Assembly: GCF_001514065.1 (NCBI RefSeq)
Contig: NZ_KQ948432.1
Location: 327,632-391,631 of the forward strand
DNA from: Streptomyces antibioticus
GTDB lineage: Bacteria; Actinomycetota; Actinomycetes; Streptomycetales; Streptomycetaceae
Direction of reading: 5' to 3'
DNA length: 64,000 bases
Shown piece after piece: positions 10,296 to 18,630 of the stretch; positions within the stretch are counted from its first letter, which is position 1; each line of letters begins with the position of its first letter. The notes under the pieces are model-generated. The model did no database searches. It saw only the letters and a list, made by a program, of their open reading frames with translations, and was not told where the DNA came from. A program made the translations under genes and the position numbers.

Positions 10296-10310
10296 CAGGG
10301 GTCCCCCAGG

Positions 10311-10356
10311 GAAGCTAAGCCAAAGCTAACTTTAGACAGATTCTAATTACCGACAA
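10311..10356 (-). promoter_or_regulatory. VIT promoter with iron-box-like operator
   Basis: On the minus strand a -35 TTGTCG (10351-10356), a 16-base spacer and a -10 TAAAGT (10329-10334) precede the VIT start. The 19 bases at 10311-10329, immediately downstream of and touching the -10, agree with the IdeR/DmdR consensus TTAGGTTAGGCTAACCTAA at about 13 positions. The element is imperfect, but its place next to an iron-transporter promoter makes it plausible. Confidence 0.45.
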
Positions 10357-10569
10357 CCCGACTGTACGACGAGAAATTCCCGCGCGCCACGAAGGAAAGG
10401 CTGGGCTAAACTGCACCTTTACCTCCGAATGCGCATACGATCGCCACCCTGCTCAGATGTCGACCGGGTGATGCTGAGGCAAGTGATGCTCTTGTCGTGA
10501 CCGCCCCGTGGGACACATCCGCAAAGGCCCCGCGCCCTGTGCGGAGCCCCCGGAGGAGAGGCCCGCCGT

Positions 10570-11613
10570 ATGGCATCGATCGCCTGCATCCCCTCGGCCC
10601 CGGCACCCGGGAACGCCGCCGAACTCCGCGAACGGGGCCGCGGCGCCCTCCTGGGCCTGGCGGTGGGAGACGCCCTCGGCGCCCCCGCCGAGAACCTCAA
10701 GCCCTCCGAGATCCGAGCCCGCTGGGGCCGCATCACGGGCTACGTGGCGGAGAAGCCCGCCGGCACGGACGACACCGAGTACGCGATCTTCTCGGGCCTC
10801 CTCCTGGCCCGCCACGGCTCGGCACTCACCCCGGCCCATGTGGAGGCGGCCTGGCACGAGTGGATCGCGGACCGCGAGGAGGGCCCGTTCCGCGGAGCGG
10901 GCTTCAGCGAACGAGGCACGCTGGAGAACCTGCGCCGGGGCCTGGCAGCCCCCATCTCCGCCCAGCACCGCCACGCCTGGAGCGACGGCCTGGCGATGCG
11001 CGCGGCCCCCTTCGGCGTCTACGCGTCCGGCCGCCCGGCGGAGGCGGCGCGCCTGGCGGCGATCGACGGCTCGGTGAGCCACGACGGCGAGGGCATCTAC
11101 GGGGGCCAGGCGGTAGCGGCCGGTGTGGCGGCGGCAATGGCAGGCGCCCCCACGGTGGCGGTGGTCGCTTCGGCCCTGGCGGTGATCCCGGACGACTCCT
11201 GGACGGCCCGCTCCCTGCGCCGCGCGGTGGCGGTGGCCCACCGAGGCGAACGAGCGGTCCGCTCCGCGGTGGTGATCGGCGGCTACCCCTGGACCGACCT
11301 GGCCCCGGAGGCGGTGGCCCTCGCCTTCGGCGCGTACGCGGCGGCGGACGGCGACTTCGTGGAGGCGGTACTGACGGCCGTCAACATGGGCCGCGACGCG
11401 GACACGACGGCGGCGGTGGCGGGCGCGCTGGCAGGCGCGACGAGGGGAGCGTCCTCGATCCCGACGGAGTGGGCCAGGGCCATCGGCCCGGCGAGGGGTA
11501 GCTGCCTGCCGTCGATGGCGGGCCATCACGTACTGGACGTGGCGGACCTACTGACACCGACCGACGAGTACGTGCTGGCGGCGGACGGCGACGAGGCGGA
11601 GGCAACGCGGTGA
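10570..11613 (+). CDS. ADP-ribosylglycohydrolase family protein, paralogue 1
   Basis: First gene of a seven-gene operon. The family (DraG/ARH fold, all-helical, two Mg2+) cleaves N- or O-glycosidic bonds of ADP-ribose conjugates. The 347 residues contain GLAVGDALG (29-37), the metal-binding TDDTE motif (Asp67, Asp68, Glu70) and the C-terminal GRDADTT motif (Asp276, Asp278), so the two-metal site looks complete. The ATG follows GGAGGAG by 11 bases. The stop overlaps the next start as GTGA. Substrate cannot be told from sequence: protein-linked ADP-ribose, free ADP-ribosyl compounds or another N-ribosyl glycoside are all possible. Confidence 0.88.
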   Translation: MASIACIPSAPAPGNAAELRERGRGALLGLAVGDALGAPAENLKPSEIRARWGRITGYVAEKPAGTDDTEYAIFSGLLLARHGSALTPAHVEAAWHEWIADREEGPFRGAGFSERGTLENLRRGLAAPISAQHRHAWSDGLAMRAAPFGVYASGRPAEAARLAAIDGSVSHDGEGIYGGQAVAAGVAAAMAGAPTVAVVASALAVIPDDSWTARSLRRAVAVAHRGERAVRSAVVIGGYPWTDLAPEAVALAFGAYAAADGDFVEAVLTAVNMGRDADTTAAVAGALAGATRGASSIPTEWARAIGPARGSCLPSMAGHHVLDVADLLTPTDEYVLAADGDEAEATR

Positions 11614-13046
11614 CTATCTCAGCCCCTCCAGCGTTTGAGGACGAACCGGTACCTGTCGACGCCGGTCCGCATCCCTCAGTCCGTCCGACGTTTGAGGACG
11701 AGGCATTGCCATCCCCAACCCCCACCCACCCGCGGGGGGCGTCGCCTTCTGACGCCGGTCCGGGTATCCCAGCCCGTCCGGCGTGTGAGGACGAGGCCCT
11801 TTCGGGGCCGAAGCGGGGGTCTGGGGGCGGCAGCCCCCAGGACGCGGAGTCGAAGGGGCGGCAGCCCCTGGGGATGGGACGGGTAGGGGCGGCGGGGGCG
11901 AAGAAGACAACCGCCGACACCCCCGCCCCAAAACCTCATCGCATCGAAGGCCTCCTGCTCGGCCTAGCCGCAGGCGACGCCGCCGGCTGGCCCGCCGCCC
12001 GCCACAGAGCCGCCCGCATGCCCGACTGGACCCGCCGCCTCACCCGCGAACTCGACACCTTCGCCGAACACAACGCCACCACCACCCTCCCCGTCCCCAT
12101 CGCCCTCAACCAACCCCCCGAGCCCCTCCGCCTGGGCCCCTCCGACGACGCGGAATGGGCGGCCTTCACCGCGGAAGCCCTCCTCCGCGCAGGCGACGAC
12201 ACCACCTTCCCCGACCTCAGCCGAGACCGCCGCACCAGAGCCGCGATCGACCTCACCTGGACCACCCTCGCCGGCGAAGTCGCCGCCGCGGCGAACCGCG
12301 CCCCCGAGATCGAGTCCGCCGTACTCCCCCTACGCGCCCGCATCTCGGTCCGCGCCGGCCTCGGCAACCTCGCCACCGGCCTACGCCCACCCGCCACCGG
12401 CCACGACAACCCCCACTACTTCGACGACGCGGCCTGCATCAGAGCCTGCGTCCTGGCCATCACCCACCCCGGCAACCCCCAACTCGCCGCGGACCTGGCC
12501 GAGTTCGACGCCCGCTACACCCAGGACGGCGACGGGGTCCACGGCGCCCGGGCCATGGCCGCGGCAATCTCCCTCGCCCTGACCGGAGCCGACGTGCACA
12601 CCTGCGTCGACGCCGCCCTCACCGAGCTCCCGGAGTCCACGGAGATCGGCCGCAACGCCCGCCACGCCCTGGCACTCGCCCGCACCACCCCCACCGCGTT
12701 CGCCCTGATCCCCCTCCTGGAACACCAGATCGTCGACCACGTCTACAGCTACGGCATCGCGGCCGCGGAAACGGTCCCGGTGGCCCTCGCGTTGGCGACC
12801 GCGGCGAACGGCGACATCACGGCAGCCGTCCCCGCCGCCGCCTGCCTGTCCCGCGTCGCGGACTCGGCCCCCGCCCTGACCGGCGCCCTCACCGGAGCCC
12901 TCACCGGCGGCACCGCCCTCCCGCCCTCCTGGCGGGACACCTGCCGCACCCTCTCCGGCTGCGCCCTCCCCCGCCTCACCGGCACCGACCTGGTGGAACT
13001 CGCCGAACTCCTGGAAGCCACGCAACCGCCCCTGCCAGGAGGATGA
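11610..13046 (+). CDS. ADP-ribosylglycohydrolase-like protein, paralogue 2, degenerate site and repeat-derived N-terminus
   Basis: The GTG at 11610 overlaps the stop of paralogue 1 as GTGA and gives 478 residues. The first 100 or so residues are low-complexity and are translated from dispersed Streptomyces repeats (three FEDE/CEDE-type copies); the family domain starts only at IEGLLLGLAAGD (112-123). An ATG at 11874 is an alternative start. The N-terminal motif reads SDDAEW (Asp179, Asp180), and the C-terminal motif reads SRVADS, with Val416 where active members have the first metal-binding Asp. Catalysis is therefore doubtful; a regulatory or structural partner of the other paralogues is possible. 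Its stop overlaps the next open frame. Confidence 0.75.
   Translation: MTISAPPAFEDEPVPVDAGPHPSVRPTFEDEALPSPTPTHPRGASPSDAGPGIPARPACEDEALSGPKRGSGGGSPQDAESKGRQPLGMGRVGAAGAKKTTADTPAPKPHRIEGLLLGLAAGDAAGWPAARHRAARMPDWTRRLTRELDTFAEHNATTTLPVPIALNQPPEPLRLGPSDDAEWAAFTAEALLRAGDDTTFPDLSRDRRTRAAIDLTWTTLAGEVAAAANRAPEIESAVLPLRARISVRAGLGNLATGLRPPATGHDNPHYFDDAACIRACVLAITHPGNPQLAADLAEFDARYTQDGDGVHGARAMAAAISLALTGADVHTCVDAALTELPESTEIGRNARHALALARTTPTAFALIPLLEHQIVDHVYSYGIAAAETVPVALALATAANGDITAAVPAAACLSRVADSAPALTGALTGALTGGTALPPSWRDTCRTLSGCALPRLTGTDLVELAELLEATQPPLPGG
11616..11910. repeat. tandem Streptomyces intergenic repeat inside paralogue 2
   Basis: Three imperfect copies of a unit containing CGTCCGGCGTTTGAGGACGA lie at 11616-11644, 11671-11702 and 11766-11795. 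They are followed by the companion GGGGGTCTGGGGGCGGCAGC segment (about 11814-11840) and a GACGGGTAGGGGCGGCGGGG tail (to about 11910). This composite is a familiar dispersed element of Streptomyces chromosomes, normally found between genes. Here it lies just after an overlapping start codon and stays open in frame. Confidence 0.8.
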
Positions 13047-13054
13047 TTCGGTTC

Positions 13055-14257
13055 ATGTCACCCGAAAACCCGCAACCCTCACAAAAAAACCTTTCGCCGA
13101 ACACGCCGAACGCCACCCTCGAAGACCGCATCACCGGCGCCCTCGTTGGCGCCGCGGTGGGCGACGCCCTGGGCGGCCCGGTGGAGGGCTACTCCCCCGA
13201 CCAGATCCTGGAACGCCACGCCGGCCGCGTCCACGGCATCGTCGGCCCCTGGAACGGCGACGCCTGGCGCACGGCCCGCCCGATCGCGCCGTACCACAAG
13301 GGTGACGGCCACGTCACCGACGACACCTTGATGACGCACGCCCTGATCAGGGTCTACGCCGCGGTCCGCGACCACCTGGACGCCTACGCCGTCGCCGACC
13401 ACCTGGTCCCCGACCTGATGACGACCCCCCGCTGGATCCCGGAACTGGAACAGGAGGCCCTGCCCCTCCACCGCCTCTTCCTGGCGGAGAAATGGCTGGT
13501 CACACGCCTCCACTACGCTCACGCGGACCCTCGCGAGGCAGGCGTCGGCAACATCGTCAACTGCGGTGCGGCGATGTACATGGCCCCGGTGGGCCTGGTC
13601 AACGCGGCGAACCCGAGGGCCGCCTACGCCGAGGCCCTGGACATCGCGGGCGCCCACCAGTCGTCGTACGGCCGCGAGGCGGCGGGAGTCTTCGCGGCGG
13701 CCGTGGCGGCGGCCTGCGCACCGAACGCGACGCCGGAGACAGTCGTCTCCCACTGCCTGTCCCTCGCGAAGGACGGCACGAGGACGGCGATCGAGAAGGT
13801 CTGCGACGTGGCAACGCACCACACCACCTTCGAGTCGGCCCTGATCCCCCTCCGCAAGGCGGTGGCCCCCTACGACACCGTCGGCCCCGACTACCGCACC
13901 CCCTCCCTCGGCGCCCGCCGCCCTTCCCGTCTCCACGCGATCGAAGAACTCCCCATCGCCCTGGGCATGTTGCTCGTGGCGAACGGCGACTACCGCGACG
14001 CGGTCCTGGGCGCCGTGAACTACGGCCGCGACTGCGACTCCATCGCGACGATGGCCGGCGCGATCGCCGGCGCCCTGGGTTCCCCGGTCCCGGAGGCCTG
14101 GTCCAAGACGGTCGCGGAGGCCAGCCGCCTGGACCTCTGGGAACCGGCGAGGACGCTCACCGAGGTGACCCGCGAGATCCACGACCACGACGTCCGCCGC
14201 CGCCGGGCCCACGAGGCCGCGTTCACGGAGATCGGAGGCCTGAGATGCTCCGACTGA
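13055..14257 (+). CDS. ADP-ribosylglycohydrolase family protein, paralogue 3
   Basis: A 400-residue member with an intact two-metal site: GAAVGDALGG (32-41), the TDDTLM motif (Asp89, Asp90) and the GRDCDS motif (Asp326, Asp328). The ATG at 13055 stands 12 bases after a perfect AGGAGG; an ATG at 13043 also overlaps the previous stop as ATGA but directly abuts the AGGAGG, so the later start is preferred. It is only distantly similar to paralogues 1 and 2, so the four copies are old duplicates or separate recruits rather than recent copies. The gene overlaps the next by 13 bases. Confidence 0.87.
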   Translation: MSPENPQPSQKNLSPNTPNATLEDRITGALVGAAVGDALGGPVEGYSPDQILERHAGRVHGIVGPWNGDAWRTARPIAPYHKGDGHVTDDTLMTHALIRVYAAVRDHLDAYAVADHLVPDLMTTPRWIPELEQEALPLHRLFLAEKWLVTRLHYAHADPREAGVGNIVNCGAAMYMAPVGLVNAANPRAAYAEALDIAGAHQSSYGREAAGVFAAAVAAACAPNATPETVVSHCLSLAKDGTRTAIEKVCDVATHHTTFESALIPLRKAVAPYDTVGPDYRTPSLGARRPSRLHAIEELPIALGMLLVANGDYRDAVLGAVNYGRDCDSIATMAGAIAGALGSPVPEAWSKTVAEASRLDLWEPARTLTEVTREIHDHDVRRRRAHEAAFTEIGGLRCSD

Positions 14258-15663
14258 CCTGGGTCCAGCCGGAGGACCTCCTGGGCCACGAGCTCCATCA
14301 GGCGGCCCTGGACGGCAGGGAACCCGGGGTGATCGCCGCGAGATGGAAGGCGGCAGGCGGCATGGAGGCCCCCCTGAGAGCCGGCGCCTCCCCCCACCCC
14401 GCGTCCCGCTACCTACGCCAACTGGCAAAGGACTTGCTGGACGAACTGTCAGACCTGCCAAGCACATTGACAGACGACGAACCCACGGACCTGGCAAGAA
14501 TCAAGGCCGGCTGCCCACAGTGGCCGGCTCCAGCCACGGCCGGCCACGCCCCAGCCCCCGCAGCCTACGAAGCAGCCTGGCTCGGCCGAGCAGCCGGCTG
14601 CCTCCTGGGCAAACCCGTGGAGAAACTCCCCCTCGACGCCATCCGCCAACTGGCCAAGTCCACCGGCAACTGGCCCCTCAACAGCTACTTCACCGCAAAG
14701 GGCGTCCCCCCGGCCCTCCTCACCGCCCACCCCTGGAACCGCCGCTCAGCCCTCACCTCCCTCGCCGAGAACATCGACGGCATGCCCGAGGACGACGACC
14801 TCAACTACCCCCTGCTCAACCTCCTCCTGCTCCAACGCCACGGCAGGCACTTCACGACCACGGACGTGGCCGGCCTCTGGCTGGACGAACTCCCCGCAGG
14901 CCGCACGTTCACCGCCGAACGCATCGCCCACCGCAACCTCCTCCTCGGCCTGGAACCCCCGCACACCGCCCGCCACCGCAACCCCTTCAGGGAATGGATC
15001 GGCGCCCTGATCCGCGCCGACGTCCACGGCTGGACCAACCCCGGCGACCCGGCCGCCGCGGCGGAACAGGCCCACCGCGACGCGACCCTCACCCACACCG
15101 CCAACGGCGTCTACGCGGCGATGTTCACGGCCGCGACGATCGCCACCGCGGCGACCGGCACCCACGACGTCCACGCCTGCCTCCGCACCGGCCTGACCGT
15201 CGTACCCCCCGCCTCCCGCCTGGCGAAGGCGATCACCCACGCGATCCGGCTCGCCGAACGCACCCCCGACTTCGACGCGGTGGTGGACGAACTCCACGCC
15301 ACCTACTCCCCCACCCACCACTGGGTCCACGCGATCCCGAACACCGCCCTGATCGCCGCCGCCCTCACTCACGCGGACGGCGACTTCACCGCCTCCATCT
15401 GCAAGGCGGTGAGCGGCGGTTGGGACACCGACTCCAACGGCGCGACGGCCGGCAGCATCGCCGCCCTCCTCACCGGAAGCCCCGCCGCCCTCCCCGACCG
15501 CTGGACGACCCCGCTGAAGAACCGACTCGCCACATCCGTGGGCGACTTCGACGGCACCGGCTTCGACACCCTGGCCCACCTCACCCACGCCCTCGCCCAC
15601 TCCCCGGACCGGGCCCCCGGCCCCGCCCCCGACGACACCCCAGTGGAGGCACCCCGCCCATGA
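14245..15663 (+). CDS. ADP-ribosylglycohydrolase family protein, paralogue 4 with N-terminal extension
   Basis: 472 residues. The family domain starts near residue 108 (AYEAAWLGRAAGCLLGKP) after an extension of about 105 residues of unknown role that begins MLRLTWVQPEDLL. Metal-site motifs are EDDDLNY (Asp183-185) and GWDTDS (Asp394, Asp396), so the active site appears intact, although the acidic triplet differs from the DDTE form in paralogue 1. The ATG has GGAGG six bases upstream, inside the end of paralogue 3. The stop overlaps the kinase start as ATGA. The extension could bind a distinct substrate or the other paralogues; no known domain was recognised in it. Confidence 0.85.
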   Translation: MLRLTWVQPEDLLGHELHQAALDGREPGVIAARWKAAGGMEAPLRAGASPHPASRYLRQLAKDLLDELSDLPSTLTDDEPTDLARIKAGCPQWPAPATAGHAPAPAAYEAAWLGRAAGCLLGKPVEKLPLDAIRQLAKSTGNWPLNSYFTAKGVPPALLTAHPWNRRSALTSLAENIDGMPEDDDLNYPLLNLLLLQRHGRHFTTTDVAGLWLDELPAGRTFTAERIAHRNLLLGLEPPHTARHRNPFREWIGALIRADVHGWTNPGDPAAAAEQAHRDATLTHTANGVYAAMFTAATIATAATGTHDVHACLRTGLTVVPPASRLAKAITHAIRLAERTPDFDAVVDELHATYSPTHHWVHAIPNTALIAAALTHADGDFTASICKAVSGGWDTDSNGATAGSIAALLTGSPAALPDRWTTPLKNRLATSVGDFDGTGFDTLAHLTHALAHSPDRAPGPAPDDTPVEAPRP

Positions 15664-16556
15664 CCCACATCGCCGTACTAGGCAGCACGAACATGGACCT
15701 CGTCGCGTACGTCGAGAAGGCCCCGCAGCGCGGCGAGACGGTCACCGGCCGCGCGTTCCGTACGATCCCCGGCGGCAAGGGCGCCAACCAGGCGATCGCC
15801 GCCGCCCGCGCCGGCGCCACCGTCTCGATGATCGGCGCGGTCGGCAACGACGCCTACGGCGCCCAACTCCGCTCCACCCTCGAACACTCCGGCGTCGACA
15901 CCGACCATCTCCGCACCGTCGAGGGCCCGTCCGGCACCGCGCACATCGTCGTCGACGACGAGGGCGGCAACGCGATCGTCGTGATCCCCGCCGCGAACGG
16001 CACCGTCGACCACCTCGCCCCCGGCGACGAGGGCCTGATCGCCTCCGCGGACGCGCTGCTGCTCCAGCTGGAGATCCCGCTGGCGGCCGTCGTGGCCGGC
16101 GCCGAGGCGGCCCGTGCCCGCGGCGTCCGGACGATCCTCACGCCCGCCCCCGCGCAGCCCCTGCCGCCCGAACTCCTCGCCGTCACCGACCTGTTGCTCC
16201 CCAACGAGTACGAGGCGACCACCCTCACCGGCCTGTCCGACCCGATCGCCGCGGCCCGGGCCCTCCTCGACCGGGTACCGGCGGTCGTCGTCACGCTCGG
16301 CGCGGCGGGCTGCCTCTACGCGGCCCGCGACGGCGCCGACCCCCTCGCCGTACCCGCCCCGCCGGTCACCGCCGTGGACTCGACCGGCGCGGGCGACACC
16401 TTCGCCGGCACCCTCGCGGTCGCGCTCAGCGAGGAGCGCCCGATCCGCGAGGCCCTGCACTGGGCGGCAGCGGCGGCGGCGCTGTCGGTGCAGCGGCCGG
16501 GCGCGTCGGCGTCGATGCCGTACCGCTCCGAGATCGACAAGCAGCACAACGCATGA
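15660..16556 (+). CDS. PfkB-family carbohydrate kinase, ribokinase-like
   Basis: A 298-residue sugar kinase. It has the ribokinase-type N-terminal substrate motif PGGKGANQAIAAAR (37-50), the NEYEA motif (182-186) and the ATP-site STGAGDTFAG (241-250), with Asp246 as the catalytic base. The overall layout fits phosphorylation of ribose or a related pentose. Inside an operon of glycohydrolases it would logically phosphorylate the sugar they release; that link is inference. It overlaps paralogue 4 by three bases and the CoA-transferase by four. Confidence 0.88.
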   Translation: MTHIAVLGSTNMDLVAYVEKAPQRGETVTGRAFRTIPGGKGANQAIAAARAGATVSMIGAVGNDAYGAQLRSTLEHSGVDTDHLRTVEGPSGTAHIVVDDEGGNAIVVIPAANGTVDHLAPGDEGLIASADALLLQLEIPLAAVVAGAEAARARGVRTILTPAPAQPLPPELLAVTDLLLPNEYEATTLTGLSDPIAAARALLDRVPAVVVTLGAAGCLYAARDGADPLAVPAPPVTAVDSTGAGDTFAGTLAVALSEERPIREALHWAAAAAALSVQRPGASASMPYRSEIDKQHNA

Positions 16557-17758
16557 CCGGCACCCCGTCCCCCGCCGCCCCGCTCTCCGGCCTCCGCGTC
16601 CTCGACCTGGCCACCCTCTTCGCGGGCCCCCTCGCCGCCACCCTGCTCGGCGACTTCGGCGCGGAGGTCGTCAAGGTCGAGCACCCCACCAAGCCCGACC
16701 CCTCCCGCGGCCACGGGCCGTCCAAGGACGGCATCGGCCTGTGGTGGAAGGTGCTCGGCCGCAACAAGCGCACGATCACCCTCGACCTCTCCAAGCCGGG
16801 CGGCCGGGCCACCCTCCTGCGCCTGGCGGCGACCGCGGACGTGATCATCGAGAACTTCCGCCCCGGCACCCTGGAGAAGTGGGACCTGAGCTGGGACGAG
16901 CTCTCCGCGGTCAACCCCCGGCTGGTCCTCACCCGTGTCACCGCCTTCGGCCAGTTCGGCCCGCACGCCCACCGTCCCGGCTTCGGCACCCTCGCCGAGG
17001 CGATGAGCGGCTTCGCCGCGATCACCGGCGAACCGGACGCACCGCCGACGCTGCCGCCCTTCGGCCTCGCCGACTCCATCGCCGGCCTCGCGACCGCGTA
17101 CGCCGTGATGACGGCCCTCGCGGCCCGCGACCGCACCGGCACGGGCCAGGTCGTCGACATGGCGATCATCGAACCGATCCTCACCGTCCTCGGCCCCCAG
17201 CCCACCTGGTACGACCAGCTCTGCTACGTCCAGCAGCGCACCGGCAACCGCTCCGCCAACAACGCCCCGCGCAACACCTACCGCACCGCGGACGGCGATT
17301 GGGTCGCCGTCTCCACCTCCGCCCAGTCGATCGCGGAACGCGTGATGCGCCTGGTGGGCCGCGAGGATCTGATCGCCGAGCCATGGTTCGCGACCGGCGC
17401 CGACCGCGCCCGCCACGCCGACGTCCTCGACGAAGCGGTCGGCACCTGGATCGCCGCCCGCAGCCGTACGGAGGTGCTGGCGGCCTTCGAGAAGGCGGAG
17501 GCGGCCGTGGCACCCATCCAGGACGTGCGGGACGTGATGACCGACCCCCAGTACGCGGCCCTCGACACCATCACCACCCTCCCCGACCCCGAACTCGGCC
17601 CCCTCCGCATGCAGAACGTCCTCTTCCGCCTCTCCGCCACCCCGGGCGCGATCCACTGGGCGGGCCGCCCGCACGGCGCCGACACGGACACCGTCCTGAC
17701 CGAACTGGGCCTGACGGACACCGAGTTGGCGGCGCTGCGCGCGGAGGGCGCCGTATGA
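16553..17758 (+). CDS. class III (CaiB/BaiF) CoA-transferase
   Basis: A 401-residue member of the family that moves CoA from one carboxylate to another through an aspartyl thioester. The N-terminal signature LRVLDLATLFAGPLAATLLGD (14-34), FGAEVVKVE (35-43), the IENFRPG motif (99-105) and Asp202 in VVDMAIIEP, which aligns with the catalytic Asp of formyl-CoA transferase, are all visible. It sits directly before an acyl-CoA lyase, an arrangement known from itaconate/citramalate-type and mesaconate-type pathways, where the transferase activates an acid that the lyase then splits. The substrate is not readable from sequence. Start and stop both overlap their neighbours (ATGA). Confidence 0.88.
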   Translation: MTGTPSPAAPLSGLRVLDLATLFAGPLAATLLGDFGAEVVKVEHPTKPDPSRGHGPSKDGIGLWWKVLGRNKRTITLDLSKPGGRATLLRLAATADVIIENFRPGTLEKWDLSWDELSAVNPRLVLTRVTAFGQFGPHAHRPGFGTLAEAMSGFAAITGEPDAPPTLPPFGLADSIAGLATAYAVMTALAARDRTGTGQVVDMAIIEPILTVLGPQPTWYDQLCYVQQRTGNRSANNAPRNTYRTADGDWVAVSTSAQSIAERVMRLVGREDLIAEPWFATGADRARHADVLDEAVGTWIAARSRTEVLAAFEKAEAAVAPIQDVRDVMTDPQYAALDTITTLPDPELGPLRMQNVLFRLSATPGAIHWAGRPHGADTDTVLTELGLTDTELAALRAEGAV

Positions 17759-18582
17759 CCACACCGCTGACATGGTTGTACGCCCCCGGCGACCGCCCGC
17801 ACGTCGTGGCGAAGGCGCTGGCGGCCGGCGCCGATGTCGTCGTGGTCGACCTGGAGGACGCGGTCGCCCCGGACCGCAAGGCCTACGCCCGCGACGCCAC
17901 CGCCGAACTGCTCACCGAACGGCACCCCGTCCCGGTCCACGTCCGCGTCAACGCCCTGGACGGCCCGCTCGCGGCGGCGGACCTGAAGGCGGTGGCCGCC
18001 CTCCCCGGCCTGTCCGGCCTCCGCCTGCCCAAGGTGACGTGGCCGCGGCAGATCACCGCCATCGCCGAACGCACCGCTCCCGCCGACGGCGGCGCACCGG
18101 CCCTCTTCGCCCTCCTGGAGTCGGCTCTCGGCATCGAACACGCCCACGCGATCGCCACGGCCCACCCGTCGCTGCGCGGCATCGCCCTGGGCGAGGCGGA
18201 CCTACGGGCGGACCTCGGCGTACGGGAGGACGCGGGCCTCGACTGGTCCCGCTCCCGCGTGATCGTGGCGGCGCGCGCCGCGAACCTCCCGTCCCCGCCC
18301 CAGTCGGTCCACCCCGACATCCGCGACCTGGAGGGCCTGGCCGCCTCCTGCGCCCACGGCCGCACCCTGGGCTTCCTGGGCCGGGCGGCCATCCACCCCC
18401 GTCAGCTCCCGATCATCGAACGGGCCTACCTCCCGACCGCGGCGGAGATCGAGAAGGCGGAGACGATCGTGAAGGCGGCGACAACGGAGCAGGGCGCCCA
18501 GGCGCTACCGGACGGCAGCTTCATCGACGCGGCGGTGGTGGCGGCGGCGCAACGCACTCTGTCGCTCGCCCGCCGCCGCTGA
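17755..18582 (+). CDS. CitE/HpcH-HpaI family acyl-CoA lyase
   Basis: 275 residues of the CoA-ester lyase family (citrate lyase beta, malyl-CoA and citramalyl-CoA lyase). Typical features are the start LYAPGDRP (8-15), VVVVDLEDAVAP (28-39), the strand LRLPKV, the metal-binding Glu in LLESALGIEHA, and GEADLRADLG. It would cleave a 3-hydroxyacyl-CoA into acetyl- or propionyl-CoA and an oxo acid, probably the product of the upstream CoA-transferase. Last gene of the seven-gene operon, followed by a strong terminator. Confidence 0.88.
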   Translation: MTTPLTWLYAPGDRPHVVAKALAAGADVVVVDLEDAVAPDRKAYARDATAELLTERHPVPVHVRVNALDGPLAAADLKAVAALPGLSGLRLPKVTWPRQITAIAERTAPADGGAPALFALLESALGIEHAHAIATAHPSLRGIALGEADLRADLGVREDAGLDWSRSRVIVAARAANLPSPPQSVHPDIRDLEGLAASCAHGRTLGFLGRAAIHPRQLPIIERAYLPTAAEIEKAETIVKAATTEQGAQALPDGSFIDAAVVAAAQRTLSLARRR

Positions 18583-18592
18583 ACCTCCGCAT

Positions 18593-18630
18593 GACGAAGG
18601 GCGCCCGGTGATCACCGGGCGCCCTTCGTC
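18593..18630. terminator. perfect 38-bp palindromic bidirectional terminator
   Basis: The 38 bases starting GACGAAGGGCGCCCGGTG are a perfect palindrome. They lie between the lyase gene on the plus strand and lgt on the minus strand, whose ends converge here, so one hairpin can stop both transcripts. Confidence 0.85.

What the first reader, a model, noticed from the sequence alone, without database searches (positions are those of the whole stretch)
10570..18582. Seven-gene operon joining four ADP-ribosylglycohydrolase paralogues to a sugar kinase, CoA-transferase and acyl-CoA lyase
Four diverged ARH-fold genes, a ribokinase-like PfkB kinase, a CaiB-type CoA-transferase and a CitE-type lyase overlap one another by a few bases and end at a perfect palindromic terminator, so they act as one unit. 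Known ARH proteins act singly on ADP-ribose conjugates. Four copies with different metal-site motifs plus a pentose kinase suggest stepwise breakdown of an N-ribosyl or related glycoside, with the freed sugar phosphorylated and the acid part activated as a CoA ester and split. That pathway is inference; no transporter or regulator gene is in the operon.
Basis: partly seen in the sequence, partly recalled or inferred. Interest (0 to 1): 0.78.

Follow-up and report, generated by a model that had tools for sequence, protein, structure and literature searches.

The report
Four-ARH sugar-conjugate breakdown operon
A conserved bacterial gene cluster, whose four 'ADP-ribose-removing' relatives have been filed as protein or nucleic-acid repair enzymes, looks instead like a pathway that takes in and breaks down an unknown ribose-type sugar conjugate, with one of the four proteins apparently an inactive look-alike carrying a long variable tail.

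Summary
Window 10570-18582 (+) encodes four ARH-fold proteins, a ribokinase, a class III CoA-transferase and a CitE-type lyase, joined by overlapping start and stop codons and followed by a 38-bp palindrome. The unit is tightly conserved: 60 of 60 full-length named loci keep ARH1-4, CaiB and CitE in order on one strand; the kinase is in 37 of 60. In 18 of 19 non-Streptomyces loci, and in two Streptomyces, a LacI regulator and a sugar ABC importer lie beside it. This genome has the importer elsewhere, and importer and cluster co-occur (61 both, 17 and 2 alone, 39 neither, of 119). This favours breakdown of an imported furanoside over ADP-ribosylation reversal, under which SCO2028-2031 are listed. 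'Four stepwise hydrolases' needs correction: ARH2 has lost a catalytic Glu (110 of 110 rows with letters) and a metal Asp (111 of 111) and carries a translated tail of very variable length, and one reduced locus (L081) has only ARH3+ARH4. Substrate, acid and all reactions are unproven.

The parts
10570..11613 (+). ARH1, the most DraG-like; complete catalytic set (Glu41-eq, TDD, GRDADT)
   Evidence: Pfam ADP_ribosyl_GH 203.8 bits; aligns to DraG 2woe E 4.4e-17; active-site columns intact in 101-102 of 102 rows
11610..13046 (+). ARH2, conserved pseudo-ARH with a low-complexity N-terminal tail (about residues 1-110)
   Evidence: Pfam 129.3 bits; Glu41-eq lost in 110 of 110 and Asp314-eq lost in 111 of 111 rows with letters, of 113 rows; ARH-fold model of 11874-13043, mean pLDDT 75.6, pTM 0.81, model residues 1-19 and 46-87 below 50
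11610..11939 (+). translated, length-variable Pro/Ala/Gly-rich tail of ARH2; here holds three TGAGGACGA-type repeats (11634, 11691, 11785)
   Evidence: ARH1-stop to ARH2-core gap 6-747 nt in 83 Streptomyces loci, multiple of 3 in 79 of 83, [ATG]TGA overlap start in 80 of 83, frame open in 81 of 83; repeats; composition
13043..14257 (+). ARH3 (taken as SCO2030 by gene order); complete catalytic set; kept in the reduced locus
   Evidence: Pfam 164.2 bits; all seven active-site columns checked are invariant in 119 of 119 rows
14245..15663 (+). ARH4 (taken as SCO2031 by gene order); complete catalytic set with EDDD in place of TDDT; extra conserved N-terminal helical region of about 100 aa; kept in the reduced locus
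   Evidence: Pfam 166.7 bits; columns in 113-115 of 115 rows; model mean pLDDT 78, pTM 0.86; Foldseek top hits MJ1187 and DraG, then ARH3
15660..16556 (+). ribokinase (PfkB family)
   Evidence: TIGR02152 305.4 bits, cut-off 299.65; facultative: 37 of 60 full-length named loci
16553..17758 (+). class III (CaiB-type) CoA-transferase, conserved GLAD motif Asp
   Evidence: CoA_transf_3 406.5 bits; best NCBIfam SucGlutTfsCaiB 235.4, below cut-off 750; GLAD in 113 of 113 rows
17755..18582 (+). CitE/HpcH-type C-C lyase
   Evidence: HpcH_HpaI 123.2 bits; best NCBIfam RipC 152.1, below cut-off 375
18593..18630 (.). 38-bp perfect palindrome between the operon and the convergent LGT gene, terminator-like but without a T run
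   Evidence: LGT on the minus strand

Best explanation
The operon encodes the intracellular half of a catabolic pathway for an imported furanoside, most likely a D-ribofuranoside-type conjugate of a small organic acid. Proposed steps: (1) a CUT1-type ABC importer (encoded next to the operon in relatives, elsewhere in this genome) brings the conjugate in, under a LacI/RbsR-like repressor in lineages that keep it. (2) The binuclear-Mg ARH hydrolases ARH3 and ARH4 (core) plus ARH1 cut furanosidic bonds. (3) Ribokinase traps freed ribose as ribose 5-phosphate where present. (4) The CaiB enzyme moves CoA onto the freed acid. (5) The CitE-type lyase splits the acyl-CoA into acetyl-CoA and an oxo-acid. 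ARH2 is not a hydrolase but a pseudo-ARH, probably a partner subunit. Shown here: the gene set, its linkage, the importer and regulator association, intact or broken active-site residues. Inferred: every reaction, the substrate and the role of ARH2.
For: Six genes in order on one strand in 60 of 60 full-length named loci and 20 of 20 unnamed Streptomyces loci; full or variant clusters in 19 of 19 other loci. LacI + two permeases + binding protein beside the cluster in 18 of 19 non-Streptomyces loci (the 19th starts at a contig edge) and in two Streptomyces. One locus has the modules rearranged yet together (L082). Own genome: binding-protein orthologue 55% identical, every other match 33% or less, beside two permeases. 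Co-occurrence 61/17/2/39 of 119 genomes, Fisher p 1.7e-15; with three cluster-fragment genomes counted as having it, 62/19/1/37, p 1.5e-15. Ribokinase passes its equivalog cut-off. ARH1, ARH3 and ARH4 keep the metal and catalytic columns. Mycolicibacterium arabiense pairs one ARH4-like protein with LacI, a sugar ABC importer and a ribokinase. A Sphingopyxis plasmid pairs ribokinase, a SUMF1-type protein, a beta-L-arabinofuranosidase-domain protein and a CoA-transferase.
Against: No substrate is known for any gene. The kinase is missing in 23 of 60 named and 6 of 20 unnamed Streptomyces loci and in L081 and L082, so ribose may not be the sugar everywhere. The Nonomuraea locus shows no CaiB or CitE in 25 kb, so the acid branch is separable. 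CaiB and CitE reach no substrate-level cut-off. No LacI orthologue stands out in the window's genome (best by E-value 42%, many others 33-44%). 17 genomes have the cluster without this importer. The Fisher test ignores shared ancestry. The M. arabiense importer is distant: its permeases match at 34-35% and its binding protein not at all at E 1e-5.
Confidence: 0.6

Rival explanations
1. The four ARHs are reversal enzymes of ADP-ribosylation (protein or nucleic acid), as the S. coelicolor literature files them, and the kinase and acyl-CoA genes merely recycle released ADP-ribose fragments.
For: SCO2028-2031 are listed as uncharacterized DraG/ARH homologues among ADP-ribosyl hydrolases; ARH1 resembles DraG.
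Against: SCO2028 and SCO2030 had no detectable activity on U-alpha-ADPr (one substrate only). A sugar importer and LacI regulator travel with the genes. A CoA-transferase and a lyase have no evident role in ADP-ribose turnover (inference). ARH scores are far below the DraG and Tri1 cut-offs.
Confidence: 0.13
2. The sugar is not ribose: the ARHs cleave another furanoside (for example an arabinofuranoside) of a plant or microbial oligosaccharide, and the ribokinase is a lineage-specific add-on.
For: The kinase is absent from many loci. A protein with an FGE-type domain behind a region that looks GH-like by eye sits in 9 of 19 non-Streptomyces loci, and its Sphingopyxis relative neighbours a gene annotated as beta-L-arabinofuranosidase-domain protein. 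An arabino-oligosaccharide-binding protein is the second-best solved relative of the importer's binding protein (weak and generic).
Against: The kinase passes the ribokinase cut-off and lies within the operon when present. The Nonomuraea LacI protein scores best with an RbsR-type model, below cut-off.
Confidence: 0.2
3. Salvage of a modified nucleoside or cofactor fragment, as the transporter type of E. coli yegTUV would suggest, with the CoA genes acting on a ring-derived acid.
For: yegTUV has a transporter predicted to be a nucleoside:H+ symporter, an ARH and a putative sugar kinase in one operon.
Against: The importer here is of the oligosaccharide ABC type, not a nucleoside symporter. YegU and YegV are only distant relatives. 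yegTUV itself has no proven function.
Confidence: 0.07

Closest known systems
E. coli yegTUV operon (GgaR/YegW regulon)
   Same: Transporter, ARH-family protein and putative sugar kinase co-transcribed; function unproven (passages of PMC10819704; region read)
   Different: One ARH, nucleoside-symporter-type transporter, GntR regulator, no CoA-transferase or lyase; YegU 26-27% to ARH1 and ARH3, YegV 22% to the kinase
Mycolicibacterium arabiense plasmid locus (LacI-ARH-SBP-permeases-ribokinase-UgpC)
   Same: ARH4-like protein (41%), ribokinase (38%), LacI (35%) and sugar ABC importer together
   Different: Single ARH, no CaiB or CitE, own ATPase, binding protein not matched at E 1e-5; function unknown
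Sphingopyxis sp. FD7 plasmid locus (TonB receptor-ribokinase-SUMF1-arabinofuranosidase-type-CoA transferase)
   Same: Ribokinase (41%), SUMF1-type protein (32%), class III CoA-transferase (33%) together
   Different: A beta-L-arabinofuranosidase-domain protein where Actinobacteria have ARHs; no CitE match in the stretch read, though an isocitrate lyase/PEP mutase-family gene lies in the divergent group
DraG / human ARH1 and ARH3 ADP-ribosyl hydrolases
   Same: Fold and metal motifs
   Different: Act on ADP-ribosyl conjugates; here four paralogues in a sugar-uptake cluster, one with a broken site
Itaconate/citramalate-type CoA-transferase plus CitE-like lyase (Rip/Ccl)
   Same: CoA-transferase followed by CitE-family lyase
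   Different: Lyase 152.1 bits against RipC cut-off 375; transferase below every equivalog cut-off matched

Membership tests
ADP-ribosylglycohydrolase family (PF03747) | whole-protein score above the Pfam gathering cut-off (26.2 bits) | tested here: met
   203.8, 129.3, 164.2, 166.7 bits for ARH1-4
ADP-ribosylglycohydrolase family (PF03747) | binuclear metal and catalytic residues (human ARH3 E41, D77, D78, D314, D316) in ARH1, ARH3 and ARH4 | tested here: met
   columns conserved in 101-102 of 102, 119 of 119 and 113-115 of 115 rows (one ARH4 row is the unlinked paralogue L087); equivalence via alignment to DraG and YegU, roles from passages of PMC8141533 and PMC5727137
ADP-ribosylglycohydrolase family (PF03747), active enzyme | same residues in ARH2 | tested here: not met
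   E41-eq is A/V/R/G in 110 of 110, D314-eq is V/L/T in 111 of 111 rows with letters
DraG (TIGR02662) and Tri1 (NF041672) | equivalog cut-offs 337.05 and 490 bits | tested here: not met
   best 75.7 and 54.4 bits
ADP-ribosyl hydrolase in function | releases ADP-ribose from a conjugate | not testable with these tools
   in print: SCO2028 and SCO2030 inactive on U-alpha-ADPr
Ribokinase (TIGR02152) | equivalog cut-off 299.65 bits | tested here: met
   305.4 bits; the second ribokinase model NF008353 is not met (261.9, cut-off 341)
Class III CoA-transferase (PF02515) | gathering cut-off; conserved Asp (its role as nucleophile recalled) | tested here: met
   406.5 bits; GLAD in 113 of 113 rows
Named CaiB equivalogs (succinate-glutarate, mesaconate, formyl, oxalate, carnitine) | NCBIfam cut-offs | tested here: not met
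   best 235.4 against 750
CitE / RipC lyase equivalogs | NCBIfam cut-offs 443.4 and 375 | tested here: not met
   145.5 and 152.1 bits
yegTUV-type unit | ARH + sugar kinase + transporter together | tested here: inconclusive
   ARH and kinase together in the window; a transporter adjacent only in relatives, and of another type

The most novel reading that the evidence does not exclude
A previously undescribed catabolic pathway, found in several actinobacterial families, imports a ribofuranosyl-organic-acid conjugate and dismantles it with an ARH-based complex in which a conserved pseudo-hydrolase (ARH2), carrying a fast-changing disordered tail, scaffolds or regulates three active paralogues. 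It would make ARH proteins, until now eraser enzymes of ADP-ribosylation, true catabolic glycosidases.
Probability: 0.3. Interest if true: 0.8.

Novelty: new variant of a known kind. Interest (0 to 1): 0.58.

Why it matters
Four of the eight uncharacterized S. coelicolor DraG/ARH homologues listed in PMC9411070, three of which an earlier paper counted when it spoke of a lively ADP-ribosylation metabolism (PMC5087735), would belong to a sugar-conjugate pathway instead. If the substrate is found, it would give the ARH fold a catabolic role, name a pathway whose ARH4 marker is in 78 of 119 order-level genomes sampled, and make yegTUV-like operons testable. A conserved pseudo-ARH with a tail of about 2-249 residues is a ready case for how inactive paralogues are kept.

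Tried and rejected
Considered that the ARH1/ARH2 overlap was an artefact of choosing a GTG start inside repeat DNA (the third-position GC of 11610-11873 is only 0.72 against 0.91 for the core). Rejected for Streptomyces: the distance is a multiple of 3 in 79 of 83 loci with an overlapping start in 80 of 83. The open frame alone is weak evidence: among 66 longer gaps the ARH2 frame is open in 61 and another frame in 44 (the third is closed by the overlapping stop itself). Outside Streptomyces the pattern is weaker: multiple of 3 in 9 of 15, overlapping start in 12 of 15, open in 11 of 15. Sought a LacI orthologue in the window's genome: none stands out. Sought the FGE-type gene in the window's genome (one 34-residue match, E 1.7e-4) and, with the distant L081 version, in 246 genomes of the phylum (0 of 246, no positive control). 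Considered iron regulation of the operon from iron-box-like sites upstream: the window's best match is 12 of 19 bases (consensus recalled), 13 or more in 56 of 86 upstream regions but 14 or more in only 6, and a site may belong to the divergent VIT gene.

Literature (open-access library only): no paper holds ARH-family name + Streptomyces + ribokinase or ARH + CoA-transferase + citrate lyase + gene cluster. One holds ARH + ribokinase + ABC transporter (listing only, not read). Four hold any of SCO2027-SCO2032; passages of all four were read, and the fourth, PMC5036795, uses the name SCO2028 only in cloning the trpM gene (SCO2038). Searches (35 papers, 20 listed; 4; 1; 2) were seen as listings; of these only PMC10819704 was opened (passages).

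Sampling: 18 of the 26 non-Streptomyces genomes with an ARH3 match were fetched, plus Nonomuraea; 8 were not read. The 20 unnamed Streptomyces loci were picked by hand from genomes with a match. The 80 named loci are the best 80 of 570, all but one titled Streptomyces (L140 reads 'Actinobacteria bacterium OV320'), so they are close relatives by selection. 'Full-length' means the 60 of 80 longer than 21,000 bases. The split of the 84 ARH4-positive genomes into 78 with an orthologue, 3 with fragments (G039, G046, G105) and 3 with only a paralogue-type or weak match (G022, G089, G104; the place of G104's match was not printed) was made by hand's listing. One of the two importer-only genomes is the fragment genome G039. 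L087, an unlinked ARH4-like paralogue, is inside the 115-row ARH4 alignment.
Full report
WHAT IS THERE. Pfam names four ADP-ribosylglycohydrolases, a PfkB kinase, a CaiB-type CoA-transferase and a CitE/HpcH lyase. The kinase passes NCBIfam's ribokinase cut-off (305.4 against 299.65); no other gene reaches an equivalog cut-off. Every junction is an overlap of 4 bases, or 13 for ARH3/ARH4, and a perfect 38-bp palindrome follows. On the left is a divergent VIT gene, on the right a convergent LGT gene. The genome holds nine ARH matches in all.

CONSERVATION. ARH4 orthologues occur in 78 of 119 order-level genomes, all in the window's genus. ARH3 matches (E 1e-30 or better) occur in 48 of 296 class-level genomes, in 10 of 114 genera. 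In the gene-order table, 60 of 60 full-length named loci and 20 of 20 unnamed Streptomyces loci keep ARH1-ARH2-ARH3-ARH4-(kinase)-CaiB-CitE on one strand; the kinase is present in 37 of 60 and 14 of 20.

THE MISSING IMPORTER AND REGULATOR. Outside Streptomyces the same genes stand with LacI-permease-permease-binding protein (SBP_bac_1 and BPD_transp_1 in L073): 18 of 19 loci, the remaining one beginning at a contig edge. Two genomes of the window's genus keep the whole arrangement (L209, L210), so the window's form probably arose by separation of the importer. The window's genome has a binding-protein orthologue on another contig, 55% identical with every other match at 33% or less, beside two permeases. 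Over 119 genomes, importer and cluster are found together in 61, cluster alone in 17, importer alone in 2, neither in 39 (Fisher p 1.7e-15, not corrected for ancestry). Nine of 19 non-Streptomyces loci also hold a protein with an FGE-type domain behind a region without a Pfam match; I call that region GH-like by eye only.

CORE AND OPTIONAL PARTS. L081, from a 1.8-Mb genome, has LacI, importer, ARH3, ARH4, the FGE-type protein, CaiB and CitE, but no ARH1, ARH2 or kinase. L082 has the modules in another order and no kinase. Nonomuraea shows no CaiB or CitE in the 25 kb read. So ARH3+ARH4 with the importer look like the core, on the strength of one reduced locus.

ACTIVE SITES. Alignment to DraG and to E. 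coli YegU and published mutants of human ARH3 fix the key residues. D77, D78, D314 and D316 hold the two Mg ions; D314A loses one Mg, binds ADP-ribose 44-fold worse and is impaired (PMC8141533, passages). E41 and D314 are needed for poly(ADP-ribose) hydrolysis, while E41A keeps weak mono-ADP-ribose activity (PMC5727137, passages). ARH1, ARH3 and ARH4 keep the full set. ARH2 keeps the first DD and the last Asp but has lost E41-eq in 110 of 110 and D314-eq in 111 of 111 rows with letters, in Streptomyces and in other genera. The His of the [S/T]H motif is Q or N in the 112 of 113 ARH2 rows printed. ARH2 still models as an ARH fold (mean pLDDT 75.6). ARH4 models similarly (78) and has an extra conserved N-terminal region. 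Both models come from 30-row, narrow alignments. Among the Foldseek hits of both are chains of a chloroplast Ycf2/Orf2971-FtsHi motor complex (titles only), so ARH-fold chains can be parts of larger assemblies.

THE ARH2 TAIL. The stretch from the ARH1 stop to the conserved start of ARH2 is 6-747 nt in 83 Streptomyces loci, a multiple of 3 in 79, with an overlapping start codon in 80. It therefore appears to be translated, as a Pro/Ala/Thr/Gly-rich tail of about 2-249 residues. Outside Streptomyces the rule is weaker (9 and 12 of 15). In the window the tail holds three TGAGGACGA-type repeats; the shorter string GAGGACGA occurs in the tail of only 5 of 83 relatives.

WHAT IT DOES. Linkage to an oligosaccharide-type ABC importer, a LacI regulator whose best model in the Nonomuraea copy is RbsR-type (191.8 bits, cut-off 382), and a ribokinase points to uptake and breakdown of a ribofuranoside-like compound, with the CoA-transferase and lyase for its acid part. 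Relatives support the theme: Mycolicibacterium arabiense has LacI-ARH-importer-ribokinase (importer only distantly related), and Sphingopyxis has TonB receptor-ribokinase-SUMF1 type-arabinofuranosidase type-CoA-transferase. The closest known unit, E. coli yegTUV, has no proven role (PMC10819704, passages).

WHAT IS IN PRINT. SCO2028-2031 are listed as uncharacterized DraG/ARH homologues (PMC9411070, passage); SCO2028-2030 are listed in PMC5087735 (passages). [quoted passage not shown]). That these are ARH1-4 in order is my inference from gene number and recalled synteny; the S. coelicolor sequence was not fetched. None of the passages read treats them as a pathway, and the word searches found no paper at all; some searches were seen mostly as listings.

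VERDICT. A real, tightly conserved and coherent unit; catabolism of an imported furanoside is the best reading (0.6). The four-step idea is not supported, because ARH2 looks inactive. Substrate and acid are open.

Noticed in passing
L087 9164-13394 (G000:C7): An unlinked ARH4-like paralogue (44-45% to ARH4) lies just before a gene that looks like a Nudix hydrolase and near a Sir2-like gene (names by eye from the start of the translations), which would suit O-acetyl-ADP-ribose turnover.
   Followed up: no
10296-10420: Weak iron-box-like sites lie between the divergent VIT (iron transporter family) gene and ARH1; best 12 of 19 bases to a recalled consensus in the window, 13 or more in 56 of 86 upstream regions.
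   Followed up: partly
11634, 11691, 11785: Three TGAGGACGA-type repeats sit in frame inside the tail of ARH2; a 24-base degenerate form of the repeat matches four places in the genome, this one included.
   Followed up: partly
L093, L101: The ARH2 tails of some species are built of internal tandem peptide repeats (e.g. TTSDTTARP-like in L101), so the tail seems to grow by repeat expansion as well.
   Followed up: no
L198 2327-8379 (Sphingopyxis plasmid): A Proteobacterial locus joins ribokinase, a SUMF1-type protein, a beta-L-arabinofuranosidase-domain protein (weak match to aceric acid hydrolase, 83.4 bits, cut-off 950) and a CoA-transferase behind a TonB receptor: a possible parallel pathway.
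   Followed up: partly
G039, G046, G105: Genomes with only fragments of the ARH4 gene at cluster-level identity (67-76%), suggesting recent decay of the cluster or assembly gaps.
   Followed up: no
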